This document shows, piece by piece, positions 3,886-10,848 of a DNA stretch of 41,423 nt. The stretch is from Fimbriiglobus sp. (GTDB lineage Bacteria > Planctomycetota > Planctomycetia > Gemmatales > Gemmataceae): the NCBI GenBank assembly GCA_025352235.1, contig JANXTU010000101.1, positions 1-41,423 of the forward strand. Direction: 5' to 3'. How positions within the stretch are numbered: the stretch's first letter is position 1; each line of letters begins with the position of its first letter. The notes beneath the pieces are model-generated. The model was not told the origin of the DNA. It saw only the letters and a program-made list of their open reading frames with translations, and searched no databases. Both the position numbers and the translations under genes were made by a program.

Positions 3886-3950
3886 TTTTCTTGGTGATTG
3901 CGCAACGGGCTTACGCGTGTCCAAGCATGCTCAGGACGAAAAGCGAACCT

Positions 3951-6554
3951 ATGAAGCTTTTAAAAATCGCCGTTTTGCTGGCACTCGGATTTGCCGGTGC
4001 GATTCACGTCGCCGATGGTCAAGAGTCGCGGAGTACATTGGAAGCGGCCAAAGAACAGGGGCGCAGCAAATCGAGATATTTGAGAGAGACCAAGGCCGCG
4101 ACGGATACCAGCGATACGATCCCCAAGGCTAACATTGCCGACTATCAGAAGTCGGTGGAACCGATCCTCACGAAGAGCTGCGTGAACTGTCACGGTCCGA
4201 AGAAGGCCAAGGGCCGACTTCGCATCGACCAACTCAACCCAGACCTACTTGCCGGCCCCGATGCTGAGAAATGGCGAGAGGTCTATAGCGCTCTCAGCAA
4301 ATCGGAAATGCCCCCAGAAAACGAGCCGGAGTATGCACTCGCCAGCGCGGATCGGGGCAAGGTGGTTGATTGGCTCAGCGAGGAATTGAATAAGGCGTCG
4401 ATCGTACGTCGCAATAGCAAAGAACATTCGTCGTTTCGTCGATTGACGAAGTACGAATACGACTATGCCCTGCAGGATCTGCTTGGCGTTCCTTATTCCT
4501 TGGCGAACAAACTCCCGCCGGAAACCAAGACGGAAGACGGTTTCAAGAACAGCTCGGAATTGCTGCAGATTTCGGGCATGCAATTCGAGACCTATCGCGA
4601 GATCGCATTGAAAGCGATCAAACGGGCGACCGTGAGCGGTCCGCGTCCCAAAGCCGTCACCTACACTGTCTCAATGCAGAAAGAGATGGATGAAGTCGGA
4701 AAAAATGCCAAAACGTTCGACCAGAGCGAAGCCAGCTATCGCAAATACAAGAATCAACAGCACCTCTTGAACCGGGAGACAGGCAAGGGCGTTCCGTTCT
4801 CCCCAGTAAAAGCGACGCCTCAGGCCGGAGCGGTTGCCGGGCAAATTCCTACCGTTTCACCCGTTGTCCTCGTGTTTCCCGAAGGCAACGAGCTGAAACT
4901 GAATCTGGATCGCTTTCTTCCCGACGAAGGCATTATGCGCGTGCGCATTCGTGCCGGACGCTCGACGATGAACCCGGACGAGTATGCCAGCCTAAGGCTC
5001 CTGCTCAGTGCCCACACCAGCAACGATGCCAATTTCACGCAGGTCATCAGTCCACGCGATATCCCAGTGACGGCATCGGCCGACAAACCGCAGTTTCTTC
5101 ACTTCGATATCCCGCTGAGCGATATCCAACGCAACCCCTTTCGGAAACTGACCACCACATTCCCGAGACGGGATGAGTTCCTACACATTCGTAATGTGTC
5201 CAATGCCACCGGAGGGGAAGAGCGTCTCAAAGTCCTCATCGAGCATATCGAAATCAGTGCGCCGTTCTACGAGCAATGGCCGCCGAAAACACACACCGAC
5301 ATTTTTATCGAGAGTGCAAACAAGGGAGATGAAAACGTCTACGGCCGCGAAGTGCTGAATAAATTCCTCCGACGCGTCTGGCGTCGACCAGCCCATTCGC
5401 AAGAAATTGACAAGTTCATGGCCCTGTTTGCGAAGTATCGGCCGGAGTTCTCAACTTTCGAAGATGCCATGGTGGAAGTGCTGGCGACGTCATTGGCCAC
5501 GCCGGAGTTCCTCTATTTGACACAACGAGCGACGAGCGACGAAAACAAGTTGCCGGCCAAGATCAGTGAGATGGAGTTGGCCAGTCGCTTGTCCGTATTT
5601 TTGTGGTCGAGCCTACCGGATGAAGAACTATTGAAACTCGCGGAGCAGGGAAAGCTTCGAAAGCCCGAGGCCTTGGCCGGCCAAGTGAAACGCATGCTGG
5701 CGGACCCGCGTTCGAGACGATTCTCTCAGAATTTCGTCGAGCAATGGCTGGGTCTGGATGGCCTCAACAGTGTGACGCACGTCCCGGCTGGCCCATTGAA
5801 AGATGCGATGCAGGAAGAGCCGATCGCCTTCTTCGAGGAAGTCCTCAGGCACAACCACAGCATCATGGACTTCATCCATTCGGATTACGCCGTGATCAAC
5901 GAACGGCTGGCGGCCCACTACGGGATTCCGAAGGTTTACGGCCCCCATTTTCGCAAAGTGCCAATCGCCCCGCACATGAATCGCGGCGGACTCTTGACGG
6001 GCGCAGCCATCCTCGCCATGAACTCCGACGGTAAGGATTCCCATCCGCTGAAGCGGGGTGTGTGGATGTTGAAACGAATCCTTCACGATCCGCCACCTCC
6101 GCCTCCGCCGGATGTCCCGGAAGTCGACCTGACGAATCCGGAGATTCTCAAAATGACTTTGAAAGAACGGATCGCCGATCACCGGAACAAGCTGGCCTGC
6201 GCATCGTGTCACTCCCGGATCGACCCGTGGGGAATCGCATTTGAGAACTACGATGCCCTCGGCGTCTTCCGGACCCACATCAAGAACAAGCCCGTCGATG
6301 CTACATCCGAATTGTTCAATCGGCAAACGCTGGCCGGGATGGATGGGCTCAAACGCTATCTGCTGACGGACCGACAGGATCAATTCGCCCAAGCGATGGT
6401 GTCGAAGTTGATGGCCTATGCCCTTGGCAGGCCGCTCACTTTTGGCGATCGCGCGGAAATCGAAAACTTGACCGCGCAGTTCCGACGACGCGATGACGGC
6501 CTGCGCGACCTGATCCAACTGATCGTGAACAGCAACCTCTTCAACTCGAAGTGA
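3951..6554 (+). CDS. Secreted PSCyt1/DUF1587/DUF1592/DUF1588/DUF1585 cytochrome-type protein
   Basis: The start at 3951 opens a signal peptide (MKLLKIAVLLALGFAGAIHVADG); in-frame codons before it lie over the predicted promoter. The 867-residue product shows the standard planctomycete architecture. A cytochrome-type haem site CVNCH lies at residues 77-81. A DUF1587-like segment (FRRLTKYEYDYALQDLLG) lies near 160, a DUF1595/DUF1592 region (FLRRVWRRP, then LATPEFLYL) near 467-640, and a DUF1588 region (LTGAAILAMNSDG near 680, then PPPPPPPDVPEVDLTNPE) follows. A second CASCH is at 750-754 and a DUF1585 tail (MAYALGRPL) near 820. The two CxxCH motifs suggest two covalently bound haems in the periplasm or at the cell surface. 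The family is very abundant in planctomycetes and has no established reaction. It is followed 16 bases later by its usual DUF1552 partner, so an operon is inferred. Confidence 0.92.
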   Translation: MKLLKIAVLLALGFAGAIHVADGQESRSTLEAAKEQGRSKSRYLRETKAATDTSDTIPKANIADYQKSVEPILTKSCVNCHGPKKAKGRLRIDQLNPDLLAGPDAEKWREVYSALSKSEMPPENEPEYALASADRGKVVDWLSEELNKASIVRRNSKEHSSFRRLTKYEYDYALQDLLGVPYSLANKLPPETKTEDGFKNSSELLQISGMQFETYREIALKAIKRATVSGPRPKAVTYTVSMQKEMDEVGKNAKTFDQSEASYRKYKNQQHLLNRETGKGVPFSPVKATPQAGAVAGQIPTVSPVVLVFPEGNELKLNLDRFLPDEGIMRVRIRAGRSTMNPDEYASLRLLLSAHTSNDANFTQVISPRDIPVTASADKPQFLHFDIPLSDIQRNPFRKLTTTFPRRDEFLHIRNVSNATGGEERLKVLIEHIEISAPFYEQWPPKTHTDIFIESANKGDENVYGREVLNKFLRRVWRRPAHSQEIDKFMALFAKYRPEFSTFEDAMVEVLATSLATPEFLYLTQRATSDENKLPAKISEMELASRLSVFLWSSLPDEELLKLAEQGKLRKPEALAGQVKRMLADPRSRRFSQNFVEQWLGLDGLNSVTHVPAGPLKDAMQEEPIAFFEEVLRHNHSIMDFIHSDYAVINERLAAHYGIPKVYGPHFRKVPIAPHMNRGGLLTGAAILAMNSDGKDSHPLKRGVWMLKRILHDPPPPPPPDVPEVDLTNPEILKMTLKERIADHRNKLACASCHSRIDPWGIAFENYDALGVFRTHIKNKPVDATSELFNRQTLAGMDGLKRYLLTDRQDQFAQAMVSKLMAYALGRPLTFGDRAEIENLTAQFRRRDDGLRDLIQLIVNSNLFNSK

Positions 6555-6570
6555 GTTTCAGGAACAGACG

Positions 6571-7968
6571 ATGAACAATAAATCCGAATCGCTGAGCCGG
6601 CGGAATTTCCTTCGTGGGACCGGGGTCGCATTGGCCCTGCCGTGGTTCGAAACATTCGCCGCGGGCGCTCCCAGTGCGGACGAGATTCCCAAGCGGTTTC
6701 TCAGCGTTTATCACCCGGATGGTGTGGGTATCCCGCTCAAGTCCGATCCGGCGTGGAAGGACTGGAGCTGGTTCCCTCGGGGTGGCGAAAAGGATTTTGA
6801 ATTGACGAAAGTGCTCGATGTGCTCAAGCCGTTGCGCAATGACATCACGATTTATTCCGGGTTGTCGCATCCCGCCGCGCGACAGGTCCACGGCCATTCC
6901 AATGCCGATCAGTATTTGACGGGTGCGCCCATCGGTGGTTCGGGCCCGTATCAGAATTCGATCTCGCTCGATCAGGTCTATGCGGAGTACTCCGGAGATT
7001 TCACCCGCTACTCTTCGTTGGTCCTGTCGACGAATGGAGGCGTTGGCGGCCCGCGTGGCGCCCAGACGCAGTCCTTCAATCGGGAAGGGCGGGCGATCCC
7101 CGCGATGAATAAACCCAAAGACATCTTCGACATGCTATTCGTGACGAGTGGTAAAGATGCGGCCGCAAAACTAGCGAGAAGCAAGAGTGCCCTGGATTTT
7201 CTGACCGAAAACACTCGCTCCTTGGCACTCGAACTCTCCAAGAAAGATCAAGAGACCCTCAAGCAGTATCTCGATGCAGTGCGCGATACCGAACTGAAGC
7301 TCGCGAAGGCGCAAAAGTGGATCGATACGCCGACCCCCAAGGTTGATACTCGCAACCTGCATCTGGATGCTGAGCCCAAAGAAGCTAAACTCTATTTCCA
7401 GACGATGTATGAACTGATCTATCTCGCCTTCCTGAGCGATTCGACCCGCGTGGCGACATTTCAGTTGGGTCGCGAGAATGGCGAAGGTCCACACGATCTG
7501 CTCTCACTCGCCGTCGGGCTTGGCGCGGCTCATGGCCTGACTCATGAGGTCAAAAAGCCCAACGGCTGGAAGAACCTGGGCACCTACAATCGGTACCAAG
7601 CCGAGGAATTCGGTCGCTTCGTCCAGAAACTCAAAGATACGCCCGAGCCGACCGGCAAAGGAAATATGCTGGATAACACGTTCGCCATGCACGGTTCGGC
7701 GTCCAGCAGTTTTCACCTCTCCCGCAACTATCCCATCATTTCCGCAGGTGGGAAAAACTTCGGCTTCACCAATGGGCGGTATCTCAAGTTCGGCAAAGGA
7801 AATGAAGACAATCAAGCCGGCGCAGGAATCGACACGGATGTGGGATGGCAAGGCAAGCTCGAAGTGGAAGAGCTTCCGCTGGCGAAGCTTTTCGTCACGA
7901 TCTTGCAGAAGCTCGGTATCAAGACCGACTCGTTCGGTGGGTACACCGGATCATTGAATCGGGTTTAA
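6571..7968 (+). CDS. DUF1552 family protein with Tat signal
   Basis: The 465-residue protein starts with a twin-arginine signal (LSRRNFLRGTGVALALPW), so export in folded form by the Tat pathway is expected. The rest matches the DUF1552 family in length and layout: an N-terminal stretch with FLSVYHPDGVG, a HGHSNADQYLTG segment, the LSLDQ-like ISLDQVYAEY, a helical middle, and a C-terminal FAMHGSASSSFHLSRNYP segment. DUF1552 genes almost always follow DUF1592-type cytochrome genes in planctomycetes, as here with a 16-base gap and AGGA (6560-6563) as ribosome binding site. The shared history implies a joint function at the periplasmic face, but the reaction is unknown. Confidence 0.92.
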   Translation: MNNKSESLSRRNFLRGTGVALALPWFETFAAGAPSADEIPKRFLSVYHPDGVGIPLKSDPAWKDWSWFPRGGEKDFELTKVLDVLKPLRNDITIYSGLSHPAARQVHGHSNADQYLTGAPIGGSGPYQNSISLDQVYAEYSGDFTRYSSLVLSTNGGVGGPRGAQTQSFNREGRAIPAMNKPKDIFDMLFVTSGKDAAAKLARSKSALDFLTENTRSLALELSKKDQETLKQYLDAVRDTELKLAKAQKWIDTPTPKVDTRNLHLDAEPKEAKLYFQTMYELIYLAFLSDSTRVATFQLGRENGEGPHDLLSLAVGLGAAHGLTHEVKKPNGWKNLGTYNRYQAEEFGRFVQKLKDTPEPTGKGNMLDNTFAMHGSASSSFHLSRNYPIISAGGKNFGFTNGRYLKFGKGNEDNQAGAGIDTDVGWQGKLEVEELPLAKLFVTILQKLGIKTDSFGGYTGSLNRV

Positions 7969-8030
7969 TTCAAACGCGCACGCGGCGCCTGTCCCCGGGG
8001 GCGGATTGGGAACTCTCGATTCGCCCCGAT

Positions 8031-8204
8031 GCGGCGTTCCGCGAACTCCGGCAGCGCCAGCCCGACGTCCAAGTGATCCTGACGAGCGGCTTCAACCAAG
8101 AAGAGGCCACCGCCGGCTTCGCGGGCAAGGGCTTGGCCGGCTTCCTCCGCAAGCCATTCGTCGCGCAGGAACTTTACGGCTTGGTGCACTCCGTGCTGGG
8201 GTAG
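8031..8204 (+). pseudogene. C-terminal fragment of a response-regulator receiver domain
   Basis: The frame reads AAFRELRQRQPDVQVILTSG and then GKGLAGFLRKPFVAQEL before a stop at 8202-8204. This is the second half of a CheY-like receiver as found at the end of hybrid histidine kinases, including the conserved switch Ser (LTSG) and the Lys-Pro pair (RKPF). The phosphoacceptor Asp and everything upstream are missing. The codons before 8031 in this frame run into the DUF1552 gene in another frame and show no family resemblance. It is best read as a relic of a gene cut by insertion or deletion. It sits directly next to the nuclease/NTPase island. Confidence 0.7.
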
Positions 8205-8208
8205 CCGG

Positions 8209-8757
8209 TCAGCTGCGGGATGCTCTGCGGTATTCGTCCAAGTCCCCGGCTCCGATCGAGTTCGCGGGGACGAGCCGATAGTGCTTTTCGTCGACCACCG
8301 AAAGTTCGCCTTCGCTCTCGATCAATTCGAACATCACGATGGTTTCACCGAGTTCATCTTCGACGAACTGCACCGCGACCGGACGCGGCACCAACAGCGG
8401 GAATTTGTAGCGGCACAGCGCCAAGTCCTGCATCACCTGCCCGGTGTTGATTTGATCCTTCCCACCCTTGGCTTGCACCGGGATCACGAATTGGTCGCCC
8501 GAGTTGGTGACGGCGACATAGACTTCATCCGTTTCGATTTGGCCGAATCCCGGGACAAATGCGCGGCAGTTCTGGTGGATCGATGTGGCGATGGAATTGA
8601 AGAAGCGGTCGATCAACCGGTTGTGCCGGATTTTTGCGAGCAGCAGGCACTTCTCGTCGAGGGCGTACCGAGAGACCATTGAAGGAGTTTCGTCGATCAC
8701 GGAGAGACGGAACCGCGCTGGATTCGGGGAAATTCGATTCTTTCGTGTCGGTGGCAT
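8209..8757 (-). CDS. Putative PD-(D/E)XK-type endonuclease
   Basis: This 182-residue protein has a core that looks like a restriction-endonuclease fold: Glu75 and Asp77 in GQIETDEVYV on one strand and PVQAKGGKD (Gln95-x-Lys97) on the next, which fits the E/D...(D/E/Q)-x-K layout. Further conserved-looking features are RHNRLIDRF (44-52), QDLALC (110-115) and a C-terminal EKHYRLVP. From memory of similar bacterial proteins, relatives may carry a longer N-terminal region, so the gene could be N-terminally short; no coding continuation is visible upstream of 8757. It lies divergent from the DUF2075-type nuclease-NTPase gene with 105 bases between starts and 4 bases beyond the receiver fragment. 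A role in DNA cleavage or phage defence is inference. Confidence 0.6.
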   Translation of the reverse strand: MPPTRKNRISPNPARFRLSVIDETPSMVSRYALDEKCLLLAKIRHNRLIDRFFNSIATSIHQNCRAFVPGFGQIETDEVYVAVTNSGDQFVIPVQAKGGKDQINTGQVMQDLALCRYKFPLLVPRPVAVQFVEDELGETIVMFELIESEGELSVVDEKHYRLVPANSIGAGDLDEYRRASRS

Positions 8758-8862
8758 AGCTACAACCTTGAAGAATACTCGGAATTCGGCCGCAGCACGG
8801 CAATATTCACGTACAACTTACATCTGTCATGGTCCAGAACATTTTGGAGCTGAAAAAAACAG

Positions 8863-10848
8863 ATGCGCAGCTACTATTCCGACCGAATCGAAATCTTTGT
8901 CGACAAATCTCAAGATGCCGTTTTAGGAGCGATTGCGAGGGCGAACGAATTCCCACTTGAACCCACGCAACGGGATTCATGGCATTATCAAATATCGTTG
9001 CTGCAAAAGATTCTATCAGAGTACAAGGGGCGTGGAAAGGTGCACTTCGAATTCACAGTCCCCCGCTTAGGCAAGCGGATCGATGCTGTCGTTATCATCG
9101 ACGCCATTGTCTTGGTTCTAGAGTTCAAAGTGGGCGAATCGGCGTTCGCAACGTACGCACACGATCAAGTTTGGGATTACGCGCTGGATTTAAAGAACTT
9201 TCACGAAGCGAGCCACTCTCGGTTCGTTGTGCCCATCCTGATCGCGACCGACGCCGATCCGCGTGAGCCGGTGGCTTTCCAAATTGATCACGATCAACTC
9301 GTTCGGCCGATCCGTTGCAACGCCGACGAATTGGGCGGCGTCATCCGGCGGGCCATCGCCGAACTTCCCCGCGACAAATCTATCTGCGACGAATGGGAAA
9401 AGGGACGGTATTGCCCGACGCCTTCGATCATCGAAGCCGCAATGGCATTGTACAACGGACACAAAGTCGCAGAAATATCGCGGAGCGACGCCGGTGCTGT
9501 CAATTTGTCCGAGACTTCGCAATCGGTCTCGGACATCATCCGCTTGTCGCGCGAGAAATCGCAGAAATCGATTTGCTTCGTCACTGGGGTCCCGGGTGCT
9601 GGAAAGACGCTGGTCGGCCTGAATATCGCGACCCAACACATTGATAAAATGAGCGAATTGTACAGTGTCTTTCTATCGGGCAACGGCCCACTCGTGGCGA
9701 TTCTTTGCGAAGCACTCGCACGGGATCGCTTGCAAATTGCGAAGGCCCGAGGCATCCGGCTTCGGAAGGGTCAAACCAAGAGCGAAGTCAAGTTATTCAT
9801 CCAGAATATCCATCACTTTCGGGACGATTGCCTTAACAATGGCGAATCTCCGCCGATCGAGCACGTTGTATTGTTCGACGAAGCGCAACGTGCATGGAAT
9901 CACGAACAGACCGCTAGCTTTATGAAACGAAAGAAAGGCCGCGCAAATTTCCCCGTATCGGAGCCGGAATTCTTGATCTCTTGCATGGATCGTCACAAAG
10001 ATTGGGCGGTAATCGTATGCTTGGTAGGCGGCGGACAAGAAATTAATACCGGCGAAGCCGGTATTTCGGAATGGATTCGTTCCGTCGTCCGATCCTATCC
10101 CGATTGGCATCTATACATTTCGGGCCGACTTTCCGATAGCGAGTACCGGGCGGATGAGACTCTCAAAGCGATCAAAGATCGCCCCAACGTGGTTTATAGC
10201 GATCCCTTACATCTTTCGGTCTCTATGCGATCCTATCGGGCTGAAAACGTCTCGCTGTTGATTAAACAACTATTAGATCTGGATATCCCGAACGCCGAAA
10301 AGACGTTCCGTCAGATTTCGTTGCAATACCCGATTTGCTTGACTCGCAACCTCGACGATGCGAAGGTTTGGCTCAAGGGTAAGGCCCGAGGAAGCGAGCG
10401 ATTTGGAATCGTCGCTTCCTCGCAAGCGCAGCGGCTGAAACCGCACGCGATCGACGTCCGCTCCCCCATAGATCCCATCCATTGGTTTTTGGATGGAAAG
10501 AACGACGTGCGATCTTCGTATTACCTCGAAGACGTGGCGACCGAATTCCAAGTCCAAGGCTTGGAATTGGATTGGACATGCGTGACGTGGGACGCGGATT
10601 TGCGTCTTCACAACTCGGCTTGGGATTATAAGTCGTTTTGCGGTCACCGTTGGACGAACGTCAAGAAGCCTTCTCGCAAGCAGTATCTTCTGAATGCTTA
10701 CCGCGTATTGCTCACCCGTGCGAGGCAGGGGATGGTGATATTCGTACCTCCTGGATCGGCGGAAGACCCGACTCGATTGCCAGCTTTCTACGACTCCACG
10801 TACGATCTTTTATGCCGTATTGGTATCCCCCCGATTCCATCGAAGTGA
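8863..10848 (+). CDS. DUF2075-type P-loop NTPase with N-terminal nuclease-like domain
   Basis: The 661-residue protein combines two parts. Residues ~1-200 look like a PD-(D/E)XK nuclease: Asp74 in RIDAVVIID and Glu87-Phe-Lys89 in LVLEFKVG. Residues ~225-661 form a helicase-like NTPase of the DUF2075/Schlafen-associated type: Walker A GVPGAGKT near 241-249, Walker [13 protein letters not shown] near 335-346, [15 protein letters not shown] near 560-575, and a late [17 protein letters not shown] motif like superfamily-1 motif VI near 613-630. The start is ATG 8863; the ribosome binding site is weak (GGAG at 8846-8849 is rather far). The stop lies 8 bases from the convergent FAH gene. Base composition looks lower in GC than in the surrounding genes, suggesting transfer. 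Nucleic-acid remodelling coupled to cleavage is inferred. Confidence 0.8.

What the first reader, a model, noticed from the sequence alone, without database searches (positions are those of the whole stretch)
8209..10848. Divergent nuclease and DUF2075-type nuclease-NTPase pair: candidate defence module
Two genes share a 105-base divergent control region. One encodes a small protein with E-x-D...Q-x-K residues of a PD-(D/E)XK fold; the other carries an N-terminal D...E-x-K nuclease-like domain fused to a helicase-like NTPase with Walker A, Walker B and motif-VI-like signatures. They are wedged between a receiver-domain relic and an FAH gene whose stop is only 8 bases away, and their base composition looks lower in GC than the neighbours. 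I do not recognise this pair as a named defence system. The defence role is inference from domains and context.
Basis: partly seen in the sequence, partly recalled or inferred. Interest (0 to 1): 0.75.

Follow-up and report, generated by a model that had tools for sequence, protein, structure and literature searches.

The report
Candidate defence nuclease-helicase beside decayed restriction gene
One gene here is an intact copy of a widespread, already catalogued but untested suspected anti-phage nuclease-helicase, and the "partner" nuclease next to it is the broken remnant of an ordinary restriction enzyme, so this is not a new two-gene defence system.

Summary
The ORFs, 105-base divergent gap, 8-base gap to the FAH gene, low GC and nuclease/NTPase motifs are all real. 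The interpretation as an unnamed two-gene defence module fails. The 661-aa gene (8863-10848 +) matches PADLOC's single-gene candidate PDC-S41 end to end (E 1.9e-281). It has a PD-(D/E)XK-type nuclease domain followed by a Schlafen-group-3 SF1-like helicase domain, is intact and conserved, occurs in 47 of 392 sampled genomes of the phylum, and is patchily spread across phyla. The 182-aa gene (8209-8757 -) is the C-terminal nuclease part of a type II restriction enzyme (PADLOC REase_II, profile 90-259 of 260). Full-length relatives are about 260-307 aa with an N-terminal, probably DNA-binding domain, and nearly all sit directly after a methyltransferase gene. Here that domain and the methyltransferase are gone, and 12 of 54 near-invariant positions are changed. 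Best reading: a horizontally acquired PDC-S41 beside a restriction-modification fossil, probably acting alone as an ATP-driven nuclease on phage DNA. Its defence role and mechanism are inference, since PDC genes are mostly unvalidated.

The parts
8863..10848 (+). PDC-S41 protein, 661 aa: PD-(D/E)XK-like nuclease domain (about residues 34-128, catalytic set E63/D74/E87-x-K89/Q102) followed by SLFN group 3 (former DUF2075) SF1-like helicase/NTPase domain (235-629)
   Evidence: PADLOC PDLC05014 PDC-S41 E 1.9e-281, residues 1-658 on profile 1-653/657; Pfam PF09848 E 8.2e-77; AF2 model pLDDT 80.4; Foldseek best hits SLFN11/SLFN14, Sen1, Upf1; 3 of 233 near-invariant positions changed, family median 2
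8209..8757 (-). N-terminally truncated type II restriction endonuclease remnant, 182 aa: the PD-(D/E)XK-type nuclease domain only; the N-terminal wHTH-like domain (about 92-110 aa) and the adjacent methyltransferase gene are missing
   Evidence: PADLOC REase_II PDLC03404 E 2.6e-54 on profile 90-259/260; relatives 283-307 aa beside MTase genes; alignments start at relatives' residue 110-118; AF2 model of a full-length relative; 12 of 54 near-invariant positions changed
8758..8862 (.). 105-base AT-rich divergent intergenic region (43.8% GC); not a native REase promoter region, since intact relatives lie downstream of their MTase gene
   Evidence: comparison
8006..8204 (+). remnant of a response-regulator receiver domain (C-terminal half only); debris next to the island, not part of the system
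   Evidence: Pfam Response_reg 60-108/111, E 4.1e-5, below cut-off

Best explanation
The locus is an intact, horizontally spread single-gene defence candidate (PDC-S41) sitting next to the decayed fossil of a type II restriction-modification system; the two are not a functional pair. Shown: PDC-S41 is a nuclease domain fused to an SF1-type helicase/NTPase with all motifs conserved, and the small gene is an orphan, truncated, eroding REase. Inferred (about 40%): PDC-S41 works alone as an ATP-dependent nuclease-helicase that loads on phage replication or repair intermediates (single-stranded or branched DNA), with ATP hydrolysis moving or licensing the N-terminal nuclease to cut that DNA, or host DNA in an abortive response. 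This is the mode proposed for Nhi, Hna and AbpAB.
For: PDC-S41 full-length match and SLFN-g3 helicase. Conserved nuclease and helicase motifs in 45 relatives. AF2 model with the alpha-beta-beta-beta-alpha-beta order of PD-(D/E)XK nucleases at residues 34-128; helicase half like SLFN11/SLFN14/Sen1/Upf1. Patchy occurrence: 0 of 3 other same-genus genomes, 9 of 99 relatives including own, 47 of 392 in the phylum. Nearest tree row is from another phylum; the Planctomycetota label needs at least 12 changes. Some PDC-S41 copies lie inside restriction cassettes: C5 methylase, Z1, DUF4420, Vsr. REase: only profile 90-259 of 260; a methyltransferase gene is adjacent in all 7 family relatives and 21 of 22 viral loci; none in the window; no homologue of the family's C5 methylase in the 90%-complete genome, only an 81-aa C-terminal C5-methylase piece on another contig. 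12 of 54 near-invariant positions lost against at most 6 in any relative. 0 of 116 other PDC-S41 loci carry the REase.
Against: The truncated REase ORF has no stop or frameshift, keeps E-x-D...Q-x-K and begins with ATG near the domain boundary, so it could still be made as a stand-alone nuclease. PADLOC-hit enrichment near PDC-S41 was not clear against far genes of the same contigs. Most PDC systems have no experimental validation (PMC12988326). The Foldseek match of the REase family to PD-(D/E)XK structures is weak (best E 0.008).
Confidence: 0.8

Rival explanations
1. A recently assembled two-gene module: the REase's nuclease domain lost its DNA-recognition domain and was captured as a partner nuclease steered by the PDC-S41 helicase.
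For: Truncation lies at the boundary between the modelled N-terminal domain and the nuclease domain; ORF and catalytic residues are intact; divergent arrangement with a 105-base gap.
Against: No second example in 116 PDC-S41 loci; PDC-S41 is normally without a fixed partner and already has its own nuclease domain; 12 of 54 near-invariant positions changed, clustered N-terminally, as expected of decay.
Confidence: 0.07
2. PDC-S41 is a housekeeping DNA-repair nuclease-helicase (Dna2-like) rather than a defence protein.
For: Nuclease plus SF1-helicase order recalls Dna2 (from general knowledge); helicase fold close to Sen1/Upf1/SLFN; strong sequence conservation, 55-65% identity across phyla.
Against: Absent from most genomes, including all 3 other same-genus genomes and all but 1 of 14 control genomes; mixed phyla on the tree; placement in restriction cassettes; PADLOC candidate status.
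Confidence: 0.13
3. PDC-S41 acts as a transcript- or tRNA-directed abortive-infection nuclease like Schlafens.
For: Shared SLFN-g3 helicase domain; SLFN11/SLFN14 are the top fold matches.
Against: No SLFN/AlbA_2 RNase domain was found by Pfam at E below 1; the N-terminal domain has a PD-(D/E)XK layout, typical of DNA nucleases.
Confidence: 0.15

Closest known systems
PADLOC PDC-S41 (PDLC05014), single-gene phage defence candidate
   Same: End-to-end match, E 1.9e-281, all conserved motifs
   Different: Nothing in the gene itself; the neighbour is a REase fossil
Type II restriction endonuclease family PADLOC REase_II (PDLC03404), R-M operons with C5 methylase and often Vsr (e.g. Paracoccus seriniphilus p12374)
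   Same: Nuclease domain, catalytic E-x-D...Q-x-K; 42-57% identity to relatives
   Different: Lacks the N-terminal domain and the methyltransferase; eroded conserved positions
Nhi / AbiO nuclease-helicase immunity
   Same: General layout of nuclease plus helicase as single-protein immunity; weak match around Walker A/B (E 5e-5 to 8e-5)
   Different: No full-length homology; match limited to residues 224-358
Human Schlafens SLFN11/SLFN14 (group 3)
   Same: Helicase domain PF09848 and fold
   Different: N-terminal nuclease is PD-(D/E)XK-like, not the Schlafen RNase core
AbpAB (E. coli)
   Same: Nuclease with D...Q-x-K active site and helicase both needed for defence, triggered by phage SSB on ssDNA (PMC10732053)
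   Different: Two proteins, different nuclease (Cap4 type) and helicase (DEAD-box-like) families; analogy only

Membership tests
PADLOC PDC-S41 | Full-length match to PDLC05014 | tested here: met
   E 1.9e-281, residues 1-658 on profile 1-653/657
PADLOC PDC-S41 | Single-gene system: no fixed partner gene | tested here: met
   No neighbour cluster in more than 4 of about 117 loci; an HNH gene found by profile in 6 of 117
PADLOC PDC-S41 | Anti-phage activity | not testable with these tools
   PDCs are described as mostly unvalidated (PMC12988326)
Type II R-M (REase_II PDLC03404) | Nuclease domain with catalytic motif | tested here: met
   E75, D77, Q95, K97 kept
Type II R-M (REase_II PDLC03404) | Full-length protein including N-terminal domain | tested here: not met
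   Profile 90-259/260 only; N-terminal part not found anywhere in the genome
Type II R-M (REase_II PDLC03404) | Cognate methyltransferase adjacent | tested here: not met
   Present in relatives, none in the window; no homologue of the family's C5 methylase in the genome
Two-gene REase + PDC-S41 module | Recurrent co-occurrence in other genomes | tested here: not met
   0 of 116 other PDC-S41 loci; no genome has both in the 99-relative searches except the window's own
Schlafen | SLFN group 3 helicase domain | tested here: met
   PF09848 E 8.2e-77
Schlafen | Schlafen RNase core (AlbA_2/SLFN) | tested here: not met
   No such Pfam match at E below 1
Nhi/AbiO | Full-length homology to the Nhi or AbiO model | tested here: not met
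   Only residues 224-358 match, E 5e-5 to 8e-5
Defence-island resident | Excess of defence genes next to PDC-S41 over distant genes | tested here: inconclusive
   124 near genes matched 92 PADLOC models, 115 far genes 47; per-gene counts not available, models redundant

The most novel reading that the evidence does not exclude
The REase nuclease domain, freed from its recognition domain, has been captured as a divergently transcribed accessory nuclease of PDC-S41, a first step in building a new two-component nuclease-helicase defence system.
Probability: 0.05. Interest if true: 0.6.

Novelty: new member of a known kind. Interest (0 to 1): 0.25.

Why it matters
It adds an intact copy of a broadly spread, strongly conserved but experimentally untested defence candidate, with a clear domain model (PD-(D/E)XK nuclease plus Schlafen-group-3 helicase) that can be tested by simple active-site and Walker mutants. 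It also shows how a restriction fossil next to a candidate gene can look like a new paired system.

Tried and rejected
Paired-module idea: rejected by co-occurrence. Missing REase N-terminus elsewhere in the genome: not found. Family C5 methylase elsewhere in the genome: not found; a generic C5-methylase search found only an 81-aa C-terminal piece on another contig. Clean empty-site comparison in the same genus: not possible, because the FAH gene has different neighbours in each relative. Defence-island enrichment by PADLOC scans near versus far: inconclusive. PDB sequence searches gave no useful hits. The one phage and four plasmid records with PDC-S41 relatives were not pursued. Paper searches for PDC-S41 and DUF2075 with defense found nothing.

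Full report
Observation. The segment has the lowest GC of all windows of its length in the 41.4 kb (53.2% against a mean of 61.4%), but this is due to the 661-aa gene (52.6%) and the gap; the small gene is like the left flank. The window is contig C90 of a 5.49 Mb, 613-contig, about 90%-complete planctomycete assembly (phylum inferred from the PSD/PSCyt-domain genes and relatives).

The 661-aa protein. It matches PADLOC's PDC-S41 model over its whole length (E 1.9e-281) and Pfam's Schlafen group 3 DNA/RNA helicase domain, formerly DUF2075, at 235-629 (E 8.2e-77). In 45 relatives, E63, D74, E87-x-K89, Q102 and the helicase motifs are invariant. The AF2 model (mean pLDDT 80.4) has helix 34-54, strands 59-65, 72-79 and 82-89, helix 97-113 and strand 121-128, with D74 and E87/K89 on adjacent strands: the PD-(D/E)XK order. 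Foldseek's best solved matches are human SLFN11 and SLFN14, then Sen1 and Upf1, i.e. SF1 helicases; overall TM-scores are low (about 0.3). The window copy departs from only 3 of 233 near-invariant positions (family median 2): it looks intact.

Distribution. 9 of 99 relatives searched (own genome included) and 47 of 392 genomes of the phylum have it, none of the three other same-genus genomes; a capped GTDB scan confirmed 513 encoding stretches in many phyla. On a 109-row FastTree tree the Planctomycetota label needs at least 12 changes, and the window copy's nearest row is from Chloroflexota. This is patchy, horizontally spread presence. PDC systems are single-gene candidates found by "guilt-by-embedding" and mostly without experimental validation (PMC12988326, citing Payne et al. 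2024 bioRxiv). In keeping with that, copies lie next to a C5 methylase plus a Z1 gene (L005), between a C5 methylase and a DUF4420 PD-(D/E)XK gene (L102, L104), or beside Vsr (L103). A crude near/far PADLOC comparison was inconclusive.

The 182-aa protein. It matches PADLOC's REase_II, but only positions 90-259 of 260 (E 2.6e-54). Relatives in the same family have open frames of 287-307 aa. In all seven of these and in 21 of 22 viral-contig loci a methyltransferase gene lies directly upstream; a Paracoccus plasmid shows the annotated operon HTH - Vsr - C5 methylase - endonuclease. Tblastn alignments of the window copy begin at relatives' residue 110-118. The AF2 model of a full-length relative (pLDDT 88.6) shows an N-terminal mainly helical domain with a beta hairpin, wHTH-like (my reading of the secondary structure), ahead of the nuclease domain; the window copy lacks just that domain. 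Its N-terminal sequence is not found elsewhere in the genome, and the family's C5 methylase is not found; only an 81-aa C-terminal C5-methylase piece exists on another contig. The window copy is changed at 12 of 54 positions that at least 95% of relatives share; no relative exceeds 6 and most have 0 to 2. It is an orphan, truncated and probably decaying REase. An intact ORF with catalytic residues remains, so residual activity cannot be excluded.

The pair. Among 127 loci held when tested, REase homologues were found only in the loci fetched for the REase itself and in the window's own. That leaves 0 of 116 other PDC-S41 loci, 95 of the 117 total with at least 1 kb on both sides and 1.27 Mb of flank in all. 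In the 99-relative searches no genome except the window's own has both genes.

Mechanism. Shown by sequence: one polypeptide joins a PD-(D/E)XK-type nuclease with an SF1-like NTPase, all motifs kept. Inferred: ATP-dependent engagement of phage DNA intermediates and cleavage. Analogous systems are AbpAB, whose nuclease has a D...Q-x-K active site and is triggered by phage SSB on ssDNA, and Nhi and Hna, which are also SSB-activated (PMC10732053). PDC-S41 is not a member of Nhi by the test made here; AbpAB and Hna are analogies only. Rivals are a Schlafen-like RNA-directed mode and a repair role.

Verdict. Real features, ordinary reading: a known defence candidate next to a restriction fossil, in a spot that also holds a half receiver domain. 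Interest is modest.

Noticed in passing
L003:683-1498, L025:11986-12966, L037:8633-9898, L070:2-673, L111:528-1643, L063:5453-6295: An HNH endonuclease-like gene (HNH_2 confirmed by Pfam in L003 and L025) lies directly next to PDC-S41 on the same strand in 6 of 117 loci, and this profile matched nowhere else in the 1.27 Mb of flanks. It may be a minor two-gene variant of PDC-S41.
   Followed up: partly
L005, L102, L104: PDC-S41 sits next to a C5 methylase and a Z1 gene, or between a C5 methylase and a DUF4420 PD-(D/E)XK gene, i.e. embedded in restriction-modification cassettes.
   Followed up: partly
L017, L018 versus L012-L016: The same REase family is paired with a C5 methylase in most loci, but in two genomes with a different gene holding a TSPPY motif (N4/N6-type methylase by inference; no Pfam hit), suggesting a methylase swap.
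   Followed up: no
window 3929-7969: The PSD/DUF1552 gene cassette is 77.6% identical at DNA level to one in another genus (G004), with no match as strong in the same-genus genomes; similarity ends at the DUF1552 stop, just left of the debris region.
   Followed up: no
window 8006-8204: Only the C-terminal half of a receiver domain remains here, further debris in the same gap between conserved genes.
   Followed up: partly
G000:C415:11176-11418: An 81-aa C-terminal piece of a C5 methylase, the only PF00145 match in the genome; not a homologue of the REase family's methylase at E 0.001.
   Followed up: no
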